NCBI GenBank assembly: GCA_029881495.1
Contig: JAOUMJ010000009.1
Span: 1-64,000 of the forward strand
Origin: Nitrospinota bacterium
Lineage (GTDB): Bacteria > Nitrospinota_A > UBA7883 > JACRGQ01
Direction of reading: 5' to 3'
Length of the DNA stretch: 64,000 nucleotides
The position numbers and the translations under genes are program-made. Below the pieces are notes generated by a model. It saw only the letters and a program-made list of their open reading frames with translations. It ran no database searches and was not told where the DNA came from. This document shows, in pieces, positions 40,503-62,414 of the stretch (positions are counted from its first letter, which is position 1; each line of letters opens with the position of its first letter).

Positions 40503-42152
40503 TTAGATCAGGTATCGCCTTATCCTTGGAATGAAATCGTTGATAACGATCGGTTTTGTAGCGAAGTCGTCGGCGCCCAAGCGTACTACTCTGTCACGTG
40601 TTTCCATATCGGAATTCGAGGTAAGAATTATGACCGGTGTATGGGCTGTATCGGGATTGCTTTTAATGAATTCAAGAACCTTCAGACCGTCCGTCTTCGG
40701 CATCTGCAGGTCGGTTATCACGAGGTTTGGTTTATGTTTGGCAATTTTTTCCATAGCTTCTTCACCGTCATTTGCTTCGAGTACAACAGTGTTCAGGCTT
40801 AATATTCTTCCGCGAAGGAGCGTGCGGATAAATTCCTCGTCATCGACAATAAGTACAACCGGTTTCACTTCAGGCAGTTTCGCGGTAAAAACGCTTCCCT
40901 TTCCAGGTTTGGAATCGATCTCCAGCACACCGCCATGCGCAAGCATGATGTCGTAACTAAGGGGGAGTCCCAGCCCTGTGCCTGTTTCACCGGCTGTACC
41001 TTCTGTTGATGTTTTCCGGTCGTAACTGAAGAGATGATTGATCCTCTCCGGTTGTATGCCGGGCCCGGTATCGGAAACGGCGATTGCGCAAGGATCCCCT
41101 TCCGGCACGAAGATCCTGATGGTATCCCCCTTTGCGCAGAATTTAATAGCGTTGGAAATAAGGTTTTGTATCACTTCCTGAAAAAGGGCTTCATCCGCGT
41201 ATATGCGGGTACGCGTAGGAATTTCATGTTTAAGTATTATCCCCTTTTTCCCGGCGAGAAGTTCCAGATCGTGCGAGACCTTTAACGCAATAATTGAGGC
41301 GTCCAGAAACCGCAGTTTTGGCGATATCTTTCCGCTTTTAATGCGGCTCACGTTGAGAATTTCCTCTATGAGTTTTATCATGCTGTTTCCGCTTTTTATG
41401 GCCCGCGCAACGATATCCCTCGAAAAGTCATCCAAACCTGCGTTTTTGCCATCGTTCAATAGCTCAAGGAATCCGATCATTGTGGAGAGCGGAGAGCGAA
41501 GATCGTGCGCCACCAATGAGATGAATTTATCTTTTAACTTTGTGGCTTCTTCAGCTTCGTTTTTCGCGAGGCGCAATCTTTCTTCGTTTTTTTTCCTTTC
41601 GGTTATATCCCTTATTATCGAGATAACACCTTTTTTGTGTTCCTCGTATTCAACGAAGCTTGATTTGACCTCAACAGGAACGTCATTGCCGTTTTTGCAG
41701 ACAAGTGTTCCCTCAAACAGCGATACACTACCCCCTTGGGCGTCTTTCAATGCTTTATCGGCAAGCTTGTACTGCTCTTTGGCGATGAAGTCGGTAAATT
41801 TTTTCCCTGAAAACTCCTCAAATTCATGCCCGATGATTTGAGCTAACTGCCTGTTCGTTTCGACTATATTTCCATCCGCGTCGGTAAGACATATCCCGTC
41901 CCGCGCGTCATGCACCAGTGTGCGGTATTTGTTTTCGGATACTATCAAGGCGTCTTCCGCTCTTTTTCGCTCTTCTGTAATTGCGGAAAGCTCCTCGGCG
42001 AGCATGTTAAGTCCCGTGAGGATCGCGTCGAGATCGTTTCCTTCATCGGAGGGAATTCCGCGCGCGTCAAGTTCGCCGGCGGCGAGACGGAATATGAGGT
42101 CGAGAATGTTGTCCATTCCCTTTTCCGATAGATGTTTTACCATTTTATCCAT
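40503..42152 (-). CDS. Soluble hybrid histidine kinase ending the STAS-like array
   Basis: 549 residues in order: HAMP-like module (about 8-57, with GELDARG and LNMLAEELS), PAS (about 70-185), HisKA with the phospho-His in FISLVAHDLRSPLSTMIGF, HATPase (NAIKFCAKGD, DTGPGIQP, GETGTGLGLPLS) and a receiver with Asp in LVITDLQMPKTDG. It has no membrane segment, so input must come through protein partners or PAS. The ATG at 42152 overlaps the stop of the last STAS-like gene (ATGGATAA), so it is coupled to the array. The HAMP-like module is also found alone in two mini-genes upstream. Confidence 0.9.
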   Translation of the reverse strand: MDKMVKHLSEKGMDNILDLIFRLAAGELDARGIPSDEGNDLDAILTGLNMLAEELSAITEERKRAEDALIVSENKYRTLVHDARDGICLTDADGNIVETNRQLAQIIGHEFEEFSGKKFTDFIAKEQYKLADKALKDAQGGSVSLFEGTLVCKNGNDVPVEVKSSFVEYEEHKKGVISIIRDITERKKNEERLRLAKNEAEEATKLKDKFISLVAHDLRSPLSTMIGFLELLNDGKNAGLDDFSRDIVARAIKSGNSMIKLIEEILNVSRIKSGKISPKLRFLDASIIALKVSHDLELLAGKKGIILKHEIPTRTRIYADEALFQEVIQNLISNAIKFCAKGDTIRIFVPEGDPCAIAVSDTGPGIQPERINHLFSYDRKTSTEGTAGETGTGLGLPLSYDIMLAHGGVLEIDSKPGKGSVFTAKLPEVKPVVLIVDDEEFIRTLLRGRILSLNTVVLEANDGEEAMEKIAKHKPNLVITDLQMPKTDGLKVLEFIKSNPDTAHTPVIILTSNSDMETRDRVVRLGADDFATKPIVINDFIPRIRRYLI

Positions 42153-42561
42153 TCCTGAATCCTTCCAGCCATTCCAACGCGCTCTTTTCGGAGGTAAAAA
42201 CCTTGGTGGGGATAACGGATTTTCCAAGGGATAAAAAGAGGTTTCCGAATAGGCGGCTTAATGTTGATTGAACCAGATAGGCTGAAGCAATGCCGGCTCT
42301 TGGTCTATCATCTCTTCCAAAATATTTTCGCACGTCCCTTGGAAATGTTTTCATGCTGCGGATATCGATAAGTGCCGGGTAAAGTTTTCCCTTTGATTTC
42401 TCAAAGATAAGTTCGATAAGTTCCCTCAAGTCGCTAACGGTGCCTTCAACATCCTGTTTGACAAGTATTCTAAGGATTCCGTCCTCCTGAAACCAGAAGA
42501 TCGCGATCCTGGTTTTAAAAACCGAAATCCCTTCGGGTGGGGAGATTGAATCATGCGTCAT
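42145..42561 (-). CDS. STAS/SpoIIAA-like array protein 9
   Basis: A 138-residue soluble protein, the copy nearest the kinase. It shares the array pattern: a strand near IFWFQEDGILR, DIRSMKTFPRDVRKYFG in the middle, LFGNLFLSLGK and the ending VFTSEKSALEWLEGFRNG. The mid motif has T where most copies have S. It overlaps gene 8 by ATGA and the kinase by 8 bp. The fold suggests an anti-sigma-antagonist-like partner; this is inference. Confidence 0.75.
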   Translation of the reverse strand: MTHDSISPPEGISVFKTRIAIFWFQEDGILRILVKQDVEGTVSDLRELIELIFEKSKGKLYPALIDIRSMKTFPRDVRKYFGRDDRPRAGIASAYLVQSTLSRLFGNLFLSLGKSVIPTKVFTSEKSALEWLEGFRNG

Positions 42562-42971
42562 TTAAAGACCTCCAGCCATTCGATCGCTTTTTCTTCAGAT
42601 GTAAAGAGTCGTATAGGGTGGTTTGGCCTGTTGAAACCGATAAAGAAATTCCCTATCAACATAGATACTTTGGAACCTCCAAGCAGAGCGGCGGCAACTA
42701 AGGAAACGGCGCGTCCTTCGTTTTGATAAATGTTGCGCGCACTCTTCGTAATCGATCGTATATTGCGTCCATCGACTAGAATAGGGCATCTTTTATTTTC
42801 CTCAATATTCATCTGATTAATGAAGGAAAGCATCGCTTCCACGTTTTCCTTCGCCGTGTCTTCGGTCTCCTCCGCGCTGGGCAAAAAAGTCTGGCGTAAA
42901 ATTCCATCTTCGCCAAGTGAAATGTTGGACGTTTTGGTGAGTATGTCCGGCAATTTATTCTTGTTTTTCAT
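42558..42971 (-). CDS. STAS/SpoIIAA-like array protein 8
   Basis: A 137-residue paralog. The middle motif is VDGRNIRSITKSARNIYQNE (I to G in the DIR motif), and the ending is MLIGNFFIGFNRPNHPIRLF then EEKAIEWLEVFK. It is one of the more divergent copies. ATGA overlaps join it to copies 7 and 9. Confidence 0.75.
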   Translation of the reverse strand: MKNKNKLPDILTKTSNISLGEDGILRQTFLPSAEETEDTAKENVEAMLSFINQMNIEENKRCPILVDGRNIRSITKSARNIYQNEGRAVSLVAAALLGGSKVSMLIGNFFIGFNRPNHPIRLFTSEEKAIEWLEVFK

Positions 42972-43390
42972 ATGAATCCTTTCAACCAGTGTACCGCCTC
43001 CAGCTCGGAAGTAAAAATGCGAAAAGGCAATGTGGGTTTATTGAATTTCAGAAAAAAGTTTCCAATAACTTTTGTGGCTGGGGATGACGTTAGCAGTGCT
43101 ACCGAAGACCCGAAATTGGCTACTTCCTCCCCCGCATAATATTCACGCGCTTCCCTTGTGATTGATTTCAGTTGGCGGATGTCTATCAGCACCGGGCGTT
43201 TTATCCCTCCGCTTGCCTTCCAGACAGTCGCTACATTTTCCCTTGCGTGTTCAATCCTTTCCTCGGCTCCCTTGTGGTCTACCATCCAGATTATTCCGTT
43301 TTCGTCGAGCCAGATGTCGACTGTGTCGGTAACATGCTTGTCATAAGTTGTCATATCGGTATTAGTTGTTGCTGCCGGATTTAAGTTCAT
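42968..43390 (-). CDS. STAS/SpoIIAA-like array protein 7
   Basis: A 140-residue paralog: DIWLDENGIIWMVDH, then VLIDIRQLKSITREAREYYA and VIGNFFLKFNKPTLPFRIF, ending ELEAVHWLKGFI. It is close to the array consensus. The start at 43390 overlaps the end of the HAMP-like mini-gene by 29 bp; an in-frame ATG at 43354 is possible but has no Shine-Dalgarno. Confidence 0.78.
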   Translation of the reverse strand: MNLNPAATTNTDMTTYDKHVTDTVDIWLDENGIIWMVDHKGAEERIEHARENVATVWKASGGIKRPVLIDIRQLKSITREAREYYAGEEVANFGSSVALLTSSPATKVIGNFFLKFNKPTLPFRIFTSELEAVHWLKGFI

Positions 43391-43565
43391 TTTTTGCCTT
43401 TAGTTCTTCTATAAGCATGTTGAGAGCGGTAATTACGGCGTCAAGTTCGTCCCCCCTGGAAGAGGTATTGCCGCGAACATCGTAATTGCCGCTAGCAATA
43501 TTGAATATCAGCATGTATATCTCCTCAAGTTTGGGATTGTTTGATATTCTTGTCTTATATTTCAC
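43362..43565 (-). CDS. Stand-alone HAMP-like mini-protein H2
   Basis: A 67-residue protein starting at GTG behind AGAGGA, two bases after the stop of array gene 6. The core LIFNIASGNYDVRGNTSSRG and DELDAVITALNMLIEELKAK match the N-terminal module of the array's kinase and of many PAS-kinases, where it forms a HAMP-like helical pair. Having no catalytic part, it may be an adaptor or a competitor for the kinase dimer. Finding it as a separate cistron between STAS-like genes is unusual. Confidence 0.72.
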   Translation of the reverse strand: MKYKTRISNNPKLEEIYMLIFNIASGNYDVRGNTSSRGDELDAVITALNMLIEELKAKNELKSGSNN

Positions 43566-43567
43566 TT

Positions 43568-43963
43568 TTAAATTCCTCTCAGCCAGATTAGCGCGTCTTT
43601 CTCCGACGTAAAGAGTTTGATAGGGTATGTGGTCCTGTTGACCCTCATGAAGAAATTTCCTATTAGCCTGGTAAGTGGAGAGTCGACCAGTATGGCGCAA
43701 GCTTTGGTTATTTTGCTGGCTTCTTCCCCCGCGTAATATTCGCGCGCTTCCCTTGAAATCGAACTCATGCCTCTGCAATCTATCAGGGCGAGAGTTTTGC
43801 TGCCTCCGCAGAGTTCCGCGCAGGCGGCGATATTTTCAATAGCATCGGAAAGGCTCTCTTTTGAGTTCGGAAGGTTTACTCGGCGGCCGATGCCGTCGTC
43901 GCCAAGCCACTGCCTGGCGGTACGGGTAGTTATTATTCGGCTGTTGACGTTATTCATGTTCAT
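43568..43963 (-). CDS. STAS/SpoIIAA-like array protein 6
   Basis: A 131-residue paralog. RQWLGDDGIGRRVNLPNSKE, LIDCRGMSSISREAREYYAG (I to C in the DIR motif, K to S before the Ser) and LIGNFFMRVNRTTYPIKLF, ending DALIWLRGI. It is 31 bp after copy 5 and 2 bp before H2. Confidence 0.77.
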   Translation of the reverse strand: MNMNNVNSRIITTRTARQWLGDDGIGRRVNLPNSKESLSDAIENIAACAELCGGSKTLALIDCRGMSSISREAREYYAGEEASKITKACAILVDSPLTRLIGNFFMRVNRTTYPIKLFTSEKDALIWLRGI

Positions 43964-43994
43964 CCAGAGATATGTCTTTTAATCTTTTTCGTTT

Positions 43995-44375
43995 TCATAT
44001 GAAAAATCCCTTCAGCCACCCTGTTGCATCATTTACGTTTTGAAAAATCTTCAGCGGGTAGCTCGGTTTGTTAAGTCCTAGAAAGAAATTCCCTATGACA
44101 CGCGTTGTGGACGATTCGACAACTAGCGCCACTGCGTTACCCACGCGAGGCCTGTCGTCACTTGCGAAATATTGCCGAGCTTCCCTCGATATGGATTTAA
44201 GTTTGCGTATATCGATGCATACAGGCAATATTTCCCCGCCCCTGATTTTCAAAATGGTGCTGATTATCTCCTCTGCGTCCGCCAGGTCAACCTCGGCGTT
44301 TTCGTTTATATTTACGCGGCTGATATTGTTTTCATCTATACAGATGCAACTGACGCGCGTATTTATCGTATTCAT
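43995..44375 (-). CDS. STAS/SpoIIAA-like array protein 5
   Basis: A 126-residue paralog: INTRVSCICIDENNISRVNI, VCIDIRKLKSISREARQYFA and VIGNFFLGLNKPSYPLKIF, ending DATGWLKGFFI. Its ATG overlaps the stop of a truncated paralog fragment (ATGA), which suggests duplication at this spot. Confidence 0.77.
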   Translation of the reverse strand: MNTINTRVSCICIDENNISRVNINENAEVDLADAEEIISTILKIRGGEILPVCIDIRKLKSISREARQYFASDDRPRVGNAVALVVESSTTRVIGNFFLGLNKPSYPLKIFQNVNDATGWLKGFFI

Positions 44376-44452
44376 TGTTTTCTGGGTAGTTGGTTGCTAA
44401 ATTCATTAATCTGAATCACCGATACCCTTGTTTCAATTTGAAAGTCCCTCAT
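44372..44452 (-). pseudogene. Truncated array paralog, 26 codons
   Basis: An open frame MRDFQIETRVSVIQINEFSN plus six residues. The part IETRVSVIQINE is close to the N-terminal strand of copy 5 (INTRVSCICIDE) and copy 4 (IQTRIASIWLGN), then similarity stops. Its TGA overlaps the ATG of copy 5. I read it as the 5' remnant of a duplicated copy; it could instead act as a coupling leader. Confidence 0.5.
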
Positions 44453-44461
44453 ATGATTATC

Positions 44462-44653
44462 CTATTTTTCAGTTTCCTGTTTTGCTTTAAGTTCTTCAGC
44501 CAGCATATTAAGGCCGGTGATAATTGCATCCAGTTCGTCCCCTTTGTTGGATACTTCTGCGCGAGATTCCAGATCACCTTCGGCAAGGTTCATAATGAGG
44601 TCGATTATCCGGTTGAAGCGGGGGTCATTCTGATTTATTTTTTCCATCTTCAT
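44462..44653 (-). CDS. Stand-alone HAMP-like mini-protein H1
   Basis: A 63-residue protein: RIIDLIMNLAEGDLESRAEV then DELDAIITGLNMLAEELKAK, the same module as H2 and the kinase N-terminus. The ATG at 44653 overlaps the stop of array gene 4 by ATGA; an ATG seven codons earlier lies inside that gene. It is closer to the kinase module than H2 is (both read GLNMLAEEL). Confidence 0.75.
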   Translation of the reverse strand: MKMEKINQNDPRFNRIIDLIMNLAEGDLESRAEVSNKGDELDAIITGLNMLAEELKAKQETEK

Positions 44654-45057
44654 TTGAGGAAGCCTCCCAGCCATTGGAGCGCCGCGTTCTCGGTGTAAAA
44701 CAGTTTTGTAGGGATATTCGGTCTGTCAATTTTCAGGAAAAAATTTCCGATAGCTGATGTCAGCGGGGAGCCGACCAGAATGGCGCATGCCGGCCCCAGT
44801 TCCTGGGCGATGGATGCGTAATGCCTTCGCGCTTCACGGGTCGTGGATTTTATGTTTCTGATATCCGCAAGCGCGGGGTGTATTTTTTCAGGCGATAATT
44901 TCTTTACGGCGGATGAAAAGGCCTGGGCGTCCTCCAAGGTTTCATTTGAGTCAGGGCGGTTTACACAGCGGATTATCCCGTCATTACCAAGCCAAATGGA
45001 CGCTATGCGCGTTTGGATGACTTCGGACGCAATGTTCATGGTATTTTCAGTTGTCAT
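44650..45057 (-). CDS. STAS/SpoIIAA-like array protein 4
   Basis: A 135-residue paralog: ASIWLGNDGIIRCVNRPDSN, LADIRNIKSTTREARRHYA and AIGNFFLKIDRPNIPTKLF, ending NAALQWLGGFLK. ATGA overlaps join it to copy 3 upstream and H1 downstream. Confidence 0.78.
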   Translation of the reverse strand: MTTENTMNIASEVIQTRIASIWLGNDGIIRCVNRPDSNETLEDAQAFSSAVKKLSPEKIHPALADIRNIKSTTREARRHYASIAQELGPACAILVGSPLTSAIGNFFLKIDRPNIPTKLFYTENAALQWLGGFLK

Positions 45058-45464
45058 TTCATAAATCCTTTAAGCCATTTCATTGCCGACGCTTCGGTAT
45101 GAAAAAGTCTGGCAGAAAAATCTGGCTTATTGATTTTCAGGAAAAAATTACCGATGGCGGAGCTCATCGGAGAGCCGACCAAAATTGCGCAGGCAAGACC
45201 GATATATTTTCCTTCCTTCGCGAAATATGCGCGCACCTCGTGATTTGTCTTTTTCACGTTTCTGATATCAATTAGCCCGACGGAATTGCCGCCTGGAGCA
45301 AATTTTTTCAAGGCGTCGATAAATTCCTTCGCATCATCCAGCGTCTGCTCCTCCCCGGGGAGAAATTGCGACCAGACGATGCCGTAGTCGTCGCTCCAGA
45401 TTTTCCATACGCGAGTTTTTACTACCTCTTGCGTATCTTTTTCCTGGGCGGAATGAGGACTCAT
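45054..45464 (-). CDS. STAS/SpoIIAA-like array protein 3
   Basis: A 136-residue paralog: VWKIWSDDYGIVWSQFLPGE, LIDIRNVKKTNHEVRAYFAK and AIGNFFLKINKPDFSARLF, ending SAMKWLKGFMK. The mid Ser is replaced by Lys (KKT). Its ATG overlaps the stop of small ORF s2. Confidence 0.77.
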   Translation of the reverse strand: MSPHSAQEKDTQEVVKTRVWKIWSDDYGIVWSQFLPGEEQTLDDAKEFIDALKKFAPGGNSVGLIDIRNVKKTNHEVRAYFAKEGKYIGLACAILVGSPMSSAIGNFFLKINKPDFSARLFHTEASAMKWLKGFMK

Positions 45465-45601
45465 TGCATGCGCCTTTCAACTATTTCTCTTTTGATGGTT
45501 AGCGTTTTTGATATTGTAAAAATATTCTCTAACAAACATCCTTCAGATTTTGCCCGTTTAAAGATCTCGTTGGCAAATACCATCGCAGTATTCATTTCCA
45601 T
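45461..45601 (-). CDS. Small coupled ORF s2, 46 residues, unknown
   Basis: The start ATG overlaps the stop of array gene 2 (TGATG) and its TGA overlaps the ATG of array gene 3 (ATGA). The frame exactly fills the gap between two array genes. The product is probably helical and basic at the end (LTIKREIVERRMQ), with one cysteine. No family recognised. The exact coupling is the main evidence that it is translated. Confidence 0.5.
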   Translation of the reverse strand: MEMNTAMVFANEIFKRAKSEGCLLENIFTISKTLTIKREIVERRMQ

Positions 45602-46005
45602 CATTCCATCCCCAAGAGCCAGTCGGAGGCTTTTTCTACGCTGTGAAAAAGCTTGACCTTATAAAGAGGGGTGTTTACCCGAATGAACATATTGCCGATT
45701 ACCGCGGTTATGGGAGAGCCTACAAGAATAGCGCACGCGCCTCCGTTGGCCGCCTCGAAAACCTCCTTGCTTGCGTAATAGTCGCGTGTCTCCTTGTCTG
45801 TAGATTTAAGCCCCCTGATATCTATAAGAGTATGGTGTTTTTCATTGCCGGTGATAGATCTTATCGCCGATATCATTTCCCTGGCATTTTCAATCCGTTC
45901 TACGACTCCTTCTAATACCGTGTACCTGATTATCCCGTTATCATCTCTCCAGACCTTTCCGTTTCTGAGAACGATTTCAGTTTTTTCAGTTGAACCATTC
46001 AGCAC
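45601..46005 (-). CDS. STAS/SpoIIAA-like array protein 2
   Basis: A 134-residue paralog starting at GTG: GKVWRDDNGIIRYTVLEG, LIDIRGLKSTDKETRDYYAS and VIGNMFIRVNTPLYKVKLF, ending KASDWLLGME. It overlaps the end of small ORF s1 by 7 bp. Confidence 0.76.
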   Translation of the reverse strand: MLNGSTEKTEIVLRNGKVWRDDNGIIRYTVLEGVVERIENAREMISAIRSITGNEKHHTLIDIRGLKSTDKETRDYYASKEVFEAANGGACAILVGSPITAVIGNMFIRVNTPLYKVKLFHSVEKASDWLLGME

Positions 46006-46124
46006 GATAATTTCACCCTTCCGGATTCAAAATTATTTCTGGCAGACTGTTCATATGACTTCGAATCTTTCATGTCATGTTGTTTGGATTGTATCTTCTG
46101 ACTGGAGGTCATGCGAAACTTCAT
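45999..46124 (-). CDS. Small coupled ORF s1, 41 residues, unknown
   Basis: The ATG overlaps the stop of array gene 1 (TAATG) and the frame ends 7 bp inside array gene 2. The product is polar and rich in K, S and Q (MKFRMTSSQKIQSKQHDMKD and on), probably disordered. No family recognised. It may be a genuine micro-protein or a coupling device that carries ribosomes to gene 2. Confidence 0.45.
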   Translation of the reverse strand: MKFRMTSSQKIQSKQHDMKDSKSYEQSARNNFESGRVKLSC

Positions 46125-46510
46125 TATATGAACCCTTTCAGCCATGAAATTGCGGAGGATTCGGATGAAAATAGTCTGAGCGGGAAAATCGTCTTGTTGA
46201 TCCGCATATAGAAATTCCCGATTACTTTTGTTAGCGGGGAGCCGACGAGGATTGCGCACGCTTTGGTTACCTCAGCGGTTTCCGGTCCGGAGTAGTATTC
46301 TCGCGCGTTTTTGGTAATCGATTTGATATTTCTGATATCTACCAGCGCGACCCCTTTTTTTCCATCCATCAACCTTGCTCCAGCGGCGATATTTTCCATG
46401 GCGTCCTTCAATGCTTCTTCGGCGCCAGGGTGGCTTTCCATCCTGATGATTCCGTCATCTCCCAGCCAAATTCTTGTTGTGCGGCAGTGAACGTCAACAG
46501 CTACCATCAT
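46124..46510 (-). CDS. STAS/SpoIIAA-like array protein 1 (first of operon)
   Basis: A 128-residue paralog: TRIWLGDDGIIRMESHPGAE, LVDIRNIKSITKNAREYYSG and VIGNFYMRINKTIFPLRLF, ending SAISWLKGFI. It is the 5'-most gene of the array. The 252 bp upstream (46511-46762) separate it from a divergent membrane-protein gene and should hold the operon promoter, which I could not define with confidence. Confidence 0.77.
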   Translation of the reverse strand: MMVAVDVHCRTTRIWLGDDGIIRMESHPGAEEALKDAMENIAAGARLMDGKKGVALVDIRNIKSITKNAREYYSGPETAEVTKACAILVGSPLTKVIGNFYMRINKTIFPLRLFSSESSAISWLKGFI

Positions 46511-60285: not shown

Positions 60286-62112
60286 TCAGCCTAATGCCAA
60301 TTTTATTTTTGAAATAATCGCCTGTTCCGTGAACGGTCTCCTGACAATGTCGGTACTAAGCCCGGACAAGGTAGTCTCTCCGATCTCGTCTTCACCCTGC
60401 TCGGCCAGTATTAAAATCAGCACGTCACGAAATTCGTGGTTTTTTTTCGCCTGCTCAAGAAATACATATCCAGATTCGGTGGCAACAGGGTAATCGACGA
60501 AAACAAGGTCCGGGCGTCTCTCCTTGACGGTGCCGAACGCCCTTGAGCAGTCGTCCATTTCAATAACGTCAACTTCTTCAACTGCAAGAATGTCCGCAAT
60601 GAATTTTCTGGATTCGGCATTTTTACTTATTATTATCGCAAACGGTTTCCTGTCGGGTATGACGATCCTGAAAACACTCCCCTGGCCAAGAACAGACTCA
60701 ACTTCCAGATCTCCGCTATGCGCTTTTGTTATGTCTTTGCAGAGCGGGAGGCCAAGTCCTGTTCCTGTTTCGCCGGCAGTTCCGGCGGTAGAGGTCTTTT
60801 CCTCGTAGTTGAAGAGATTTTTACGCCTGTTTTCTTCTATTCCTATCCCGGTATCTGAAACGGCGATGACCTGCATCCCGCTTCTGCCCGGCTCAAGAAA
60901 TATCTTTATCGTATCCCCGCGCTTGCAGAATTTGATGCTGTTTACGAGCAGGTTCTCTATGACCTGCTGTAAAAGGGCGGGATCACCAAATATCCTCGCG
61001 CCATGCGGGATATCTATCTTCAAAGATATTCCTTTCATCGCCGCGGGATCGCTTATCGTAAAGTTTATCTTCAGTACCATCTGGTACAGGTTGAAGAAAC
61101 GCATTTCAGGTCTTAATATCCCTGTCTTTATTCTGTTGATGTTCAAGAGATTTTCAGTAAGTTCCAGCATGTTTTTGGTGATTGAAATGGAGTTCGCAAG
61201 GAATTTCTCCGTCTCCGCTTCGTTGCGGTTCTCTCCGACCATCCTGAGGTATGAAAGGAGCGTGCTGAGAGGCGCGCGGAGATCGTGGGCGACAAGAGAT
61301 ACGAATTTGTCCCTTAGTTTGGTGGCCTGTTCGGCGTTCTCTTTGGCGGCCCATAGCTGAAGCTCAGCTTTTTTTCTTTCAGTGATATCTGTAAAGGCTC
61401 CTATCTGGCCTGTCTGTTTTCCTTCGGAATTGAATACCGGCCCGCCTGACACGACGACTTCCCTTTTGCTTCCGTTTCTTCCAACCAGCGTCACCTCATA
61501 GCTGGAGATTATCCCCATCTCCCTTTTTTTGCTCTCTTCATTTATCCTTTCGAGGCTTCCGATTGTGAAGAAGGAGTGGAAGGTCTCGTTTTGCAGCTCT
61601 TCAGGGCTTTCTATCTCCAGCATTTCGCACATGACGTCGTTCACATATACGGTGTAACCATCAGTCGTTACGTTCCAGATGCCTATCGGGGCATGGTCCG
61701 CGAGCGCCTTGTACATCTGCTGGCTGTCTATGAGCGATGCTTCTGTCGCTCTGCTTTCAACCGCGAACTGGATGGAGTGGTGGAGGAGAGGGGGTGTGAG
61801 CATCCCTAGCACCAGGTAGTCGGATACCCCCATTTTTCTGGCGGCCAATTCGCGGCTGGTATCCTGTTTTTCAACGATCATCAGCGTAGGGATTTTCTGG
61901 TGCTCTCTTGTGAGCTTTTTCAGCATCGTGAATTCCTGTTTGCCGTCGACGAAATTCAGGATGATCAGTCCGACCCCATCAAGGTCGGGTTCCTTTGAGA
62001 AATCCTTGTAGGTGCGAATTCCGAGTTCGTAGGCTCCCTTTTTCATTTTCTTGAAAAGGGATGCTATCTTTCCATGTGCCAGTACAGTTTTTTCCAACAG
62101 AATAATTTTCAT
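60286..62112 (-). CDS. Hybrid histidine kinase with receiver-like domains at both ends
   Basis: 608 residues: an N-terminal receiver-like domain (about 1-120) with Asn in place of the phospho-Asp (LIILNFVDG), PAS (about 130-245), HisKA with His in FVSLVAHDLRAPLSTLLSY, HATPase (NSIKFCKRGD, DTGIGIEE, GETGTGLGLPLC), and a C-terminal receiver with Asp in LVFVDYPVATESGYVF. The kinase core is closely similar to that of the array kinase at 40503. No membrane helix. Output is probably by phosphorelay to a separate protein. Confidence 0.88.
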   Translation of the reverse strand: MKIILLEKTVLAHGKIASLFKKMKKGAYELGIRTYKDFSKEPDLDGVGLIILNFVDGKQEFTMLKKLTREHQKIPTLMIVEKQDTSRELAARKMGVSDYLVLGMLTPPLLHHSIQFAVESRATEASLIDSQQMYKALADHAPIGIWNVTTDGYTVYVNDVMCEMLEIESPEELQNETFHSFFTIGSLERINEESKKREMGIISSYEVTLVGRNGSKREVVVSGGPVFNSEGKQTGQIGAFTDITERKKAELQLWAAKENAEQATKLRDKFVSLVAHDLRAPLSTLLSYLRMVGENRNEAETEKFLANSISITKNMLELTENLLNINRIKTGILRPEMRFFNLYQMVLKINFTISDPAAMKGISLKIDIPHGARIFGDPALLQQVIENLLVNSIKFCKRGDTIKIFLEPGRSGMQVIAVSDTGIGIEENRRKNLFNYEEKTSTAGTAGETGTGLGLPLCKDITKAHSGDLEVESVLGQGSVFRIVIPDRKPFAIIISKNAESRKFIADILAVEEVDVIEMDDCSRAFGTVKERRPDLVFVDYPVATESGYVFLEQAKKNHEFRDVLILILAEQGEDEIGETTLSGLSTDIVRRPFTEQAIISKIKLALG

Positions 62113-62414
62113 ATCATTCCAGAGCTTTCAACATACATTCAGTTCACAAGCTTCTGCAAAGGCATCACGGTGAATTGTCGTGCAGTTATAGTCGATTTCC
62201 GGTTCCCCCCGTATCTATAGTAATTCCGCATCTTAGCAGATTGTTGATTTGAAAAAAAAGCGGACTGTTTCAGGGTACCTTTTATAAGTGGTGGATATCG
62301 GCTGTAATTTGTTCTTGTTGCGCGTGGTTTGGTTATTAAATAGACTAGCCTGAACCGGCGGAAACGGATTTTGCGAATGTTGCCGGTATTGTTCCATTTT
62401 TCAGGAGAAGATCC
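62113..62414. other. 302-bp divergent region between the hybrid kinase and pheA
   Basis: No gene, RNA or hairpin recognised. The pheA Shine-Dalgarno (AGGAG) is at its 3' end. Confidence 0.5.

What the first reader, a model, noticed from the sequence alone, without database searches (positions are those of the whole stretch)
40503..46510. Nine tandem STAS-like paralogs coupled to one soluble hybrid kinase
Nine genes (copies at 46124, 45601, 45054, 44650, 43995, 43568, 42968, 42558, 42145) encode the same 126-140 residue protein with pattern DIRxxKSIxREARxYxA, IGNFFLxxNKP and WLKGF. They run in one direction into a hybrid histidine kinase with no membrane or ligand-binding sensor beyond PAS. 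Most junctions are ATGA-type overlaps. STAS-like proteins act as partner-switch components, so the copies may be alternative inputs or a scaffold for one kinase. I know of no described system with this gene number and order.
Basis: partly seen in the sequence, partly recalled or inferred. Interest (0 to 1): 0.88.

Follow-up and report, generated by a model that had tools for sequence, protein, structure and literature searches.

The report
Nine-copy DUF7793 array feeding HAMP kinase
A bacterium carries an operon of nine diverged copies of a small protein of unknown function, two tiny free-standing HAMP proteins and one soluble hybrid kinase; relatives elsewhere show that this small protein is regularly encoded just before HAMP-headed regulators of very different kinds, so the pair looks like an undescribed, portable input module for bacterial signalling.

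Summary
In detail: nine intact, same-strand paralogs precede one soluble hybrid histidine kinase. All nine are Pfam DUF7793 (PF25056); the fold is SpoIIAA/STAS-like. The operon reads DUFx4-HAMP, DUFx2-HAMP, DUFx3-HAMP-PAS-HisKA-HATPase-REC.

The new result is comparative. In 18 loci of 15 other genomes (Bacteroidota, Calditrichota), one or two DUF7793 genes lie directly upstream of a protein that starts with the same soluble HAMP but ends in different outputs: AraC-type DNA-binding domain, sigma-54 activator, HisKA, HisKA_2, HisKA_3 or hybrid kinase. In 297 whole genomes, 12 of 14 proteins with this HAMP sit just behind a DUF7793 gene. DUF7793+HAMP is therefore probably a portable input pair, and the window holds its most expanded form seen here (largest other cluster: three).

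Partner switching is not supported: no Ser/Thr kinase or phosphatase in the operon and no fixed phospho-serine. A recent decaying amplification is excluded. Binding of DUF7793 to HAMP, the signal and the output are inferred, not shown.

The parts
46124..46510 (-). DUF7793 copy 1 (c1), 128 aa
   Evidence: PF25056 104.4 bits; sister of c6 in the tree, support 100/92
45601..46005 (-). DUF7793 copy 2 (c2), 134 aa, GTG start
   Evidence: PF25056 77.9 bits
45461..45604 (-). 47-aa ORF between c2 and c3, 4-base overlaps at both ends; function unknown
   Evidence: no Pfam match; no relative in the loci held
45054..45464 (-). DUF7793 copy 3 (c3), 136 aa
   Evidence: PF25056 90.4 bits; sister of c4, 97/93
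44650..45057 (-). DUF7793 copy 4 (c4), 135 aa
   Evidence: PF25056 98.3 bits
44462..44653 (-). Free-standing HAMP microprotein h1, 63 aa, 4-base overlap with c4
   Evidence: PF00672 31.7 bits against cut-off 25; whole-genome search finds this HAMP type only in this array; AlphaFold2 helix 11-24 / connector / helix 40-62, pLDDT 89; best PDB match Af1503 HAMP, rmsd 1.5 A
44372..44452 (-). 26-aa ORF resembling the first residues of a DUF7793 copy; leader or remnant
   Evidence: MRDFQIETRVSVIQINEF... against c5 MNTINTRVSCICIDEN
43995..44375 (-). DUF7793 copy 5 (c5), 126 aa
   Evidence: PF25056 104.7 bits
43568..43963 (-). DUF7793 copy 6 (c6), 131 aa
   Evidence: PF25056 93.5 bits; PF11964 SpoIIAA-like 18.5 bits, below its cut-off of 25
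43362..43565 (-). Free-standing HAMP microprotein h2, 67 aa, GTG start, overlaps c7 by 29 bases
   Evidence: PF00672 24.5 bits, just under cut-off 25; 48-49% identical to h1
42968..43390 (-). DUF7793 copy 7 (c7), 140 aa; the copy that was folded
   Evidence: PF25056 101.1 bits; AlphaFold2 pLDDT 90.8, pTM 0.82
42558..42971 (-). DUF7793 copy 8 (c8), 137 aa
   Evidence: PF25056 83.9 bits; PF11964 20.3 bits, below its cut-off of 25
42145..42561 (-). DUF7793 copy 9 (c9), 138 aa, overlaps the kinase start by 8 bases
   Evidence: PF25056 84.4 bits
40503..42152 (-). Soluble hybrid histidine kinase, 549 aa: HAMP-PAS-HisKA-HATPase_c-REC; H-box VAHDLRSPL and REC site ITDLQMPK present
   Evidence: Pfam; third copy of the HAMP; sequence read

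Best explanation
The locus is an expanded form of a portable two-part input module. DUF7793 is a small cytoplasmic SpoIIAA/STAS-like protein. It most likely docks on a soluble HAMP domain that heads the downstream regulator and shifts the HAMP dimer between its signalling states, so that DUF7793 takes the place of the missing transmembrane or ligand-binding sensor. In the window, nine diverged DUF7793 proteins are alternative or co-assembling inputs that converge on the HAMP of one hybrid kinase. The two free-standing HAMP microproteins are probably duplicated receiving HAMPs without an output; they may act as decoys, adaptors or hetero-dimer partners that bind DUF7793 copies or the kinase HAMP and tune the input. 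Kinase output then goes from His to REC, probably onward to an Hpt or response regulator encoded elsewhere. Shown by computation: family, fold, operon anatomy, age, and the DUF7793-HAMP linkage across genomes. Inferred: physical binding, direction of effect, ligand, role of the free HAMPs, output.
For: Linkage: 18 loci in 15 other genomes have DUF7793 directly upstream of a HAMP-headed protein. HAMP profile over 297 whole genomes: 12 of 14 proteins hit lie just behind DUF7793, 7 of these 12 not used to build the profile; the exceptions are one AraC-type paralog and one membrane chemoreceptor. Genome co-occurrence p about 1e-11; about 1e-5 by my arithmetic when the five genomes that gave profile rows are left out. 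Output swap: L012 and L058 have near-identical DUF7793 and the same HAMP start, but one ends in a sigma-54 activator (Pfam) and the other in a kinase region (sequence). Other outputs: AraC, HisKA, HisKA_2, HisKA_3, hybrid kinases. The window's three HAMPs are the only ones of this type in its genome and all lie in the array. Array copies sit in the tree with the HAMP-linked copies, away from most of the unlinked ones. Numbers of DUF7793 and HAMP covary, Fisher p 0.019. In 23 of 25 linked HAMPs the glycine of the canonical DExG motif, which couples HAMP to transmembrane input (PMC3570549), is D or E. A known analogue in logic: CvnF accessory proteins accompany histidine kinases without a sensor domain and one of them stimulates its kinase (PMC13343842).
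Against: No binding data; the fused DUF-HAMP fold could not be run. Many DUF7793 genes in other genomes have no such HAMP nearby, and one HAMP-AraC paralog has no DUF7793. The two single DUF7793 genes of the same genome have no HAMP within their fetched flanks. The HAMP profile was partly built from linked loci. Loci of one lineage are not independent, so the p-values are too small. Nothing shows that all nine copies are expressed together.
Confidence: 0.6

Rival explanations
1. Stressosome-like or partner-switch system: the nine STAS-like proteins co-assemble or are phosphorylated on Ser/Thr and exchange partners, sequestering a regulator.
For: SpoIIAA/STAS fold. Several paralogs of one STAS protein is what the stressosome has in RsbR paralogs (PMC6760441 and PMC9237128 abstracts). 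S/T at the start of helix 2 in six of nine copies.
Against: No Ser/Thr kinase of the RsbT/RsbW type and no PP2C phosphatase among the operon genes. That helix-2 residue is D, N or P in c2, c3, c9 and varies across the family, as expected of an N-cap. The copies have no N-terminal sensor domain as RsbR has. The recurring partner in other genomes is a HAMP protein.
Confidence: 0.13
2. Lipid- or ligand-carrying SEC14-like role: DUF7793 copies bind different nonpolar ligands and the kinase reads ligand-loaded forms, or the copies have a carrier function unrelated to the kinase.
For: Two proteins of the related fold family were shown in open and closed forms with a nonpolar cavity and were proposed to bind ligands at membranes (PMC2954212). 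2q3l is the best fold match. Unlinked DUF7793 genes lie next to unrelated enzymes.
Against: Does not explain the repeated junction with HAMP-headed regulators. No cavity was tested on the model. May be compatible with the best explanation as its sensing step.
Confidence: 0.15
3. Neutral gene amplification: an ordinary DUF7793-kinase pair whose upstream gene multiplied, with no function in the number.
For: Only this genome among 24 of its phylum has the family, so it was probably acquired and amplified in one lineage. A 26-aa ORF may be a remnant copy.
Against: All nine intact at 27-54% identity, synonymous sites saturated (pS 0.61-0.85) while pN is 0.31-0.53: long selection on each. Base composition like the surroundings. 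Free HAMP genes kept too.
Confidence: 0.1

Closest known systems
Pfam DUF7793 (PF25056); solved member 3bl4 (Arth_0117, Arthrobacter sp. FB24)
   Same: All nine copies are members; profile match to 3bl4 E 1.4e-24
   Different: The family has no described function (no paper naming DUF7793 found); nowhere else seen here in nine tandem copies
SpoIIAA-like / SEC14-like proteins (PF11964; 2q3l, 2ook; PMC2954212)
   Same: Same fold, same size, no fixed phospho-serine
   Different: Matches only weakly by sequence (best 20.3 bits against cut-off 25)
Soluble and poly-HAMP receptors (Aer2; PMC3570549)
   Same: HAMP without membrane anchor; tandem HAMPs in some relatives (L014, L060, L061, L102)
   Different: HAMP-only proteins of 63-67 aa; D/E instead of the DExG glycine; a separate small protein as presumed input
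CvnF accessory proteins of actinobacterial G-protein systems (PMC13343842)
   Same: Stand-alone small protein beside a kinase without sensor domain, acting as modulator or input
   Different: CvnF is a GAF protein and is modelled on DHp/HATPase, not on HAMP; one accessory protein in the system studied; the signal there passes to a small GTPase
Stressosome RsbR/RsbS/RsbT and SpoIIAA/SpoIIAB partner switches
   Same: STAS-type fold, several paralogs
   Different: No Ser/Thr kinase or phosphatase in the operon, no sensor domains on the copies; partner is a HAMP histidine kinase

Membership tests
DUF7793 (PF25056) | Whole-protein match over the curated cut-off (26 bits) | tested here: met
   77.9-104.7 bits for all nine
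DUF7793 (PF25056) | SpoIIAA/STAS-type alpha/beta fold | tested here: met
   AlphaFold2 of c7 only, pLDDT 90.8; Foldseek matches 2q3l, SpoIIAA 1tid/1h4z, STAS 4xs5
HAMP (PF00672), for h1, h2 and the kinase N-terminus | Profile match and helix-connector-helix | tested here: met
   h1 31.7 bits (cut-off 25), h2 24.5, just under; kinase N-terminus by homology to h1, no Pfam HAMP hit of its own; h1 model matches Af1503 HAMP
HAMP (PF00672), for h1, h2 and the kinase N-terminus | Parallel dimeric four-helix bundle | not testable with these tools
   Only single chains could be folded
Hybrid histidine kinase | HisKA with His, HATPase_c, REC with Asp | tested here: met
   Pfam hits; H-box and REC Asp readable in the sequence
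STAS partner-switch / stressosome | Cognate GHKL Ser/Thr kinase and PP2C phosphatase in the operon | tested here: not met
   None among operon genes and next neighbours; the rest of the genome was not searched
STAS partner-switch / stressosome | Conserved phospho-serine/threonine at the start of helix 2 | tested here: inconclusive
   S/T in six of nine copies, D/N/P in three; mixed across the family
STAS partner-switch / stressosome | Large oligomeric assembly | not testable with these tools
   Needs experiment

The most novel reading that the evidence does not exclude
DUF7793 plus a soluble DEx[D/E]-type HAMP is an undescribed, phylum-crossing input module for kinases and transcription factors, and this genome has turned it into a multi-input integrator: nine DUF7793 receptors compete or co-assemble on three HAMPs, two of them free microproteins, that together set one kinase.
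Probability: 0.4. Interest if true: 0.82.

Novelty: new variant of a known kind. Interest (0 to 1): 0.64.

Why it matters
It gives a testable function to a family of unknown function (DUF7793, with a structure in the PDB since 2007): input protein for soluble HAMP domains. It would explain how soluble HAMP regulators without sensor domains receive signals, and the nine-copy array with free HAMP proteins is a natural case for studying many-to-one signal integration.

Tried and rejected
Classical partner switch: rejected as the leading idea (see rivals). Recent amplification: rejected by divergence and saturation. Recent horizontal import: base composition is like the surroundings; distribution still points to an old acquisition. 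Empty-site test: TypA neighbours are not conserved in the family, so no insertion site could be read. Recurrent neighbours of unlinked DUF7793 genes: none worth naming. HAMP in viral contigs: none. Plasmids: five Arthrobacter/Paenarthrobacter records with single distant relatives. Alignment A5 contained a row typed in error and was discarded; A6 replaced it before any search. Literature: nothing on DUF7793 or on a STAS-HAMP-AraC combination; one search gave two papers holding STAS, HAMP and soluble kinase terms, neither on this pairing judging by title and abstract. Only open-access papers were searchable.
Full report
WHAT IS THERE. I call them c1 (46510) to c9 (42145). They are followed by a hybrid histidine kinase, best start ATG 42152, end 40503: a HAMP-like N-terminus, PAS, HisKA, HATPase_c, REC. 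Pfam matched no other sensor. The operon has 7 four-base overlaps in 13 junctions once small genes are counted; the widest gap is 118 bases between c1 and c2.

Reading the DNA between copies shows two free-standing genes for 63 and 67 aa proteins, h1 (44653-44462) and h2 (43565-43362); h1 is 49% identical to h2 and 46% to the kinase's N-terminus. They are HAMP domains: h1 31.7 bits against cut-off 25, h2 24.5. The h1 model is helix-connector-helix with pLDDT 89 and its best PDB matches are Af1503 HAMP structures at 1.5 A (E-values weak, as expected for 63 residues). A search of the whole genome with the three sequences finds only these three places. The array is therefore DUFx4-HAMP, DUFx2-HAMP, DUFx3-HAMP-kinase. 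A 47-aa ORF between c2 and c3 fits with four-base overlaps at both ends and has no known relative; a 26-aa ORF before c5 looks like the first residues of a DUF7793 copy.

AGE AND SELECTION. Copies are 27-54% identical, synonymous differences are saturated or nearly so (pS 0.61-0.85) and exceed non-synonymous ones (pN 0.31-0.53) in every pair. c1-c6 and c3-c4 are supported sisters. The amplification is old and every copy has been kept. Two single DUF7793 genes lie elsewhere in the genome. None of the other 23 genomes of the phylum, 10 of them of the same family, has DUF7793 at all. Composition is like the surroundings. Synteny next to TypA is not conserved, so an empty site could not be read.

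FOLD. AlphaFold2 of c7 with 18 aligned sequences gives pLDDT 90.8, pTM 0.82. Foldseek finds SpoIIAA-like 2q3l, SpoIIAA (1tid, 1til, 1h4z), STAS proteins and, lower, SiaC. By sequence the family is represented in the PDB by 3bl4, an uncharacterized Arthrobacter protein. The published SpoIIAA-like relatives lack the phospho-serine of SpoIIAA and can open a nonpolar cavity (PMC2954212). In the array the residue at the start of helix 2 is T or S in six copies and D, N or P in c2, c3 and c9. Only c7 was folded; the other eight rest on the profile match.

THE COMPARATIVE RESULT. I fetched about 45 regions around DUF7793 genes from other genomes. They fall in two classes. In 18 loci of 15 genomes, DUF7793 (one or two genes) lies directly upstream of a protein that begins with the same soluble HAMP. 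Outputs differ: PAS plus AraC-type DNA-binding domain (eight loci), hybrid kinases (L013, L060, L061), HisKA-type or similar kinases (L058, L070, L100, L102), HisKA_2 (L051), HisKA_3 (L014), sigma-54 activator (L012) (Pfam was run on L012-L014, L051, L059-L061, L070, L071, L073, the rest are by similarity to those or to the window kinase). L012 and L058 share an almost identical DUF7793 and HAMP start but end in different output domains, so DUF7793 plus HAMP travels as the constant part. The other class has no such HAMP nearby and sits next to unrelated genes. In the tree most unlinked copies form a supported group (100/98) and the window copies lie with linked ones, though the dividing fork itself is weak.

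CONTROL. A HAMP profile (A6) run over 297 whole Bacteroidota genomes gave 14 proteins: 12 directly behind a DUF7793 gene, including seven that did not contribute to the profile. The exceptions are an AraC-type paralog (G097:C12) and an ordinary membrane chemoreceptor (G087). Nine of ten HAMP-positive genomes are among the 18 DUF7793-positive ones (p about 1e-11; about 1e-5 by my arithmetic for the five genomes that gave no profile row). These figures ignore relatedness. In 23 of 25 linked HAMPs the canonical DExG glycine is D or E; it is K in the unlinked AraC-type paralog and G in the chemoreceptor. In published work DExG couples HAMP to transmembrane input (PMC3570549), so its loss fits a different kind of input. 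Loci with two DUF7793 genes tend to have two HAMPs (Fisher p 0.019; few and related loci).

HOW RARE IS THE ARRAY. In the genomes searched with the DUF7793 model (several hundred distinct genomes, about 30 with the family) the largest other cluster is three genes, not linked to HAMP (G029:C387). The sample covers few phyla, so larger arrays may exist.

MECHANISM. The best reading is that DUF7793 acts on the HAMP of its neighbour and so serves as a separate sensor or modulator subunit, comparable in logic, not in parts, to CvnF beside sensorless kinases (PMC13343842). Nine copies then offer nine inputs or a mixed assembly, and free HAMPs could bind copies or pair with the kinase HAMP. Shown: anatomy, families, fold of one copy, age, genomic linkage. 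Inferred: binding, sign of regulation, ligands, role of the free HAMPs, downstream target. Partner switching, carrier function and neutral amplification are weighed as rivals.

VERDICT. Real and interesting, less for the number nine than for the DUF7793-HAMP pairing it led to. New variant of a known kind (accessory-protein control of a histidine kinase).

Noticed in passing
G000:C17:32093-32431 and G000:C10:66360-66692 (L004, L006): Two further single DUF7793 genes of the same genome, close to the array copies in the tree, with no HAMP of this type near them; possible trans-acting partners of the array kinase.
   Followed up: partly
45461-45604: 47-aa ORF with four-base overlaps to c2 and c3 and no detectable relative or Pfam match.
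   Followed up: partly
44372-44452: 26-aa ORF resembling the N-terminus of a DUF7793 copy; leader peptide or remnant of a tenth copy.
   Followed up: no
L041:5954-6754 (G029:C199): Two DUF7793 domains fused in one 267-aa protein; genomes G027, G028 and G029 carry 9-15 scattered DUF7793 genes, mostly without HAMP partners.
   Followed up: no
L012:1036-4333 and L058:1521-4449: Near-identical DUF7793 and HAMP start joined to a sigma-54 activator in one genome and to a kinase in the other: a recent output swap.
   Followed up: partly
L106:5044-6000 (G097:C12): HAMP-PAS-AraC-like paralog without a DUF7793 neighbour; K at the position that is D/E in DUF7793-linked HAMPs.
   Followed up: partly
60289-62127: A second PAS hybrid kinase (PAS-HisKA-HATPase_c-REC) in the window without a DUF7793 neighbour or this HAMP.
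   Followed up: no
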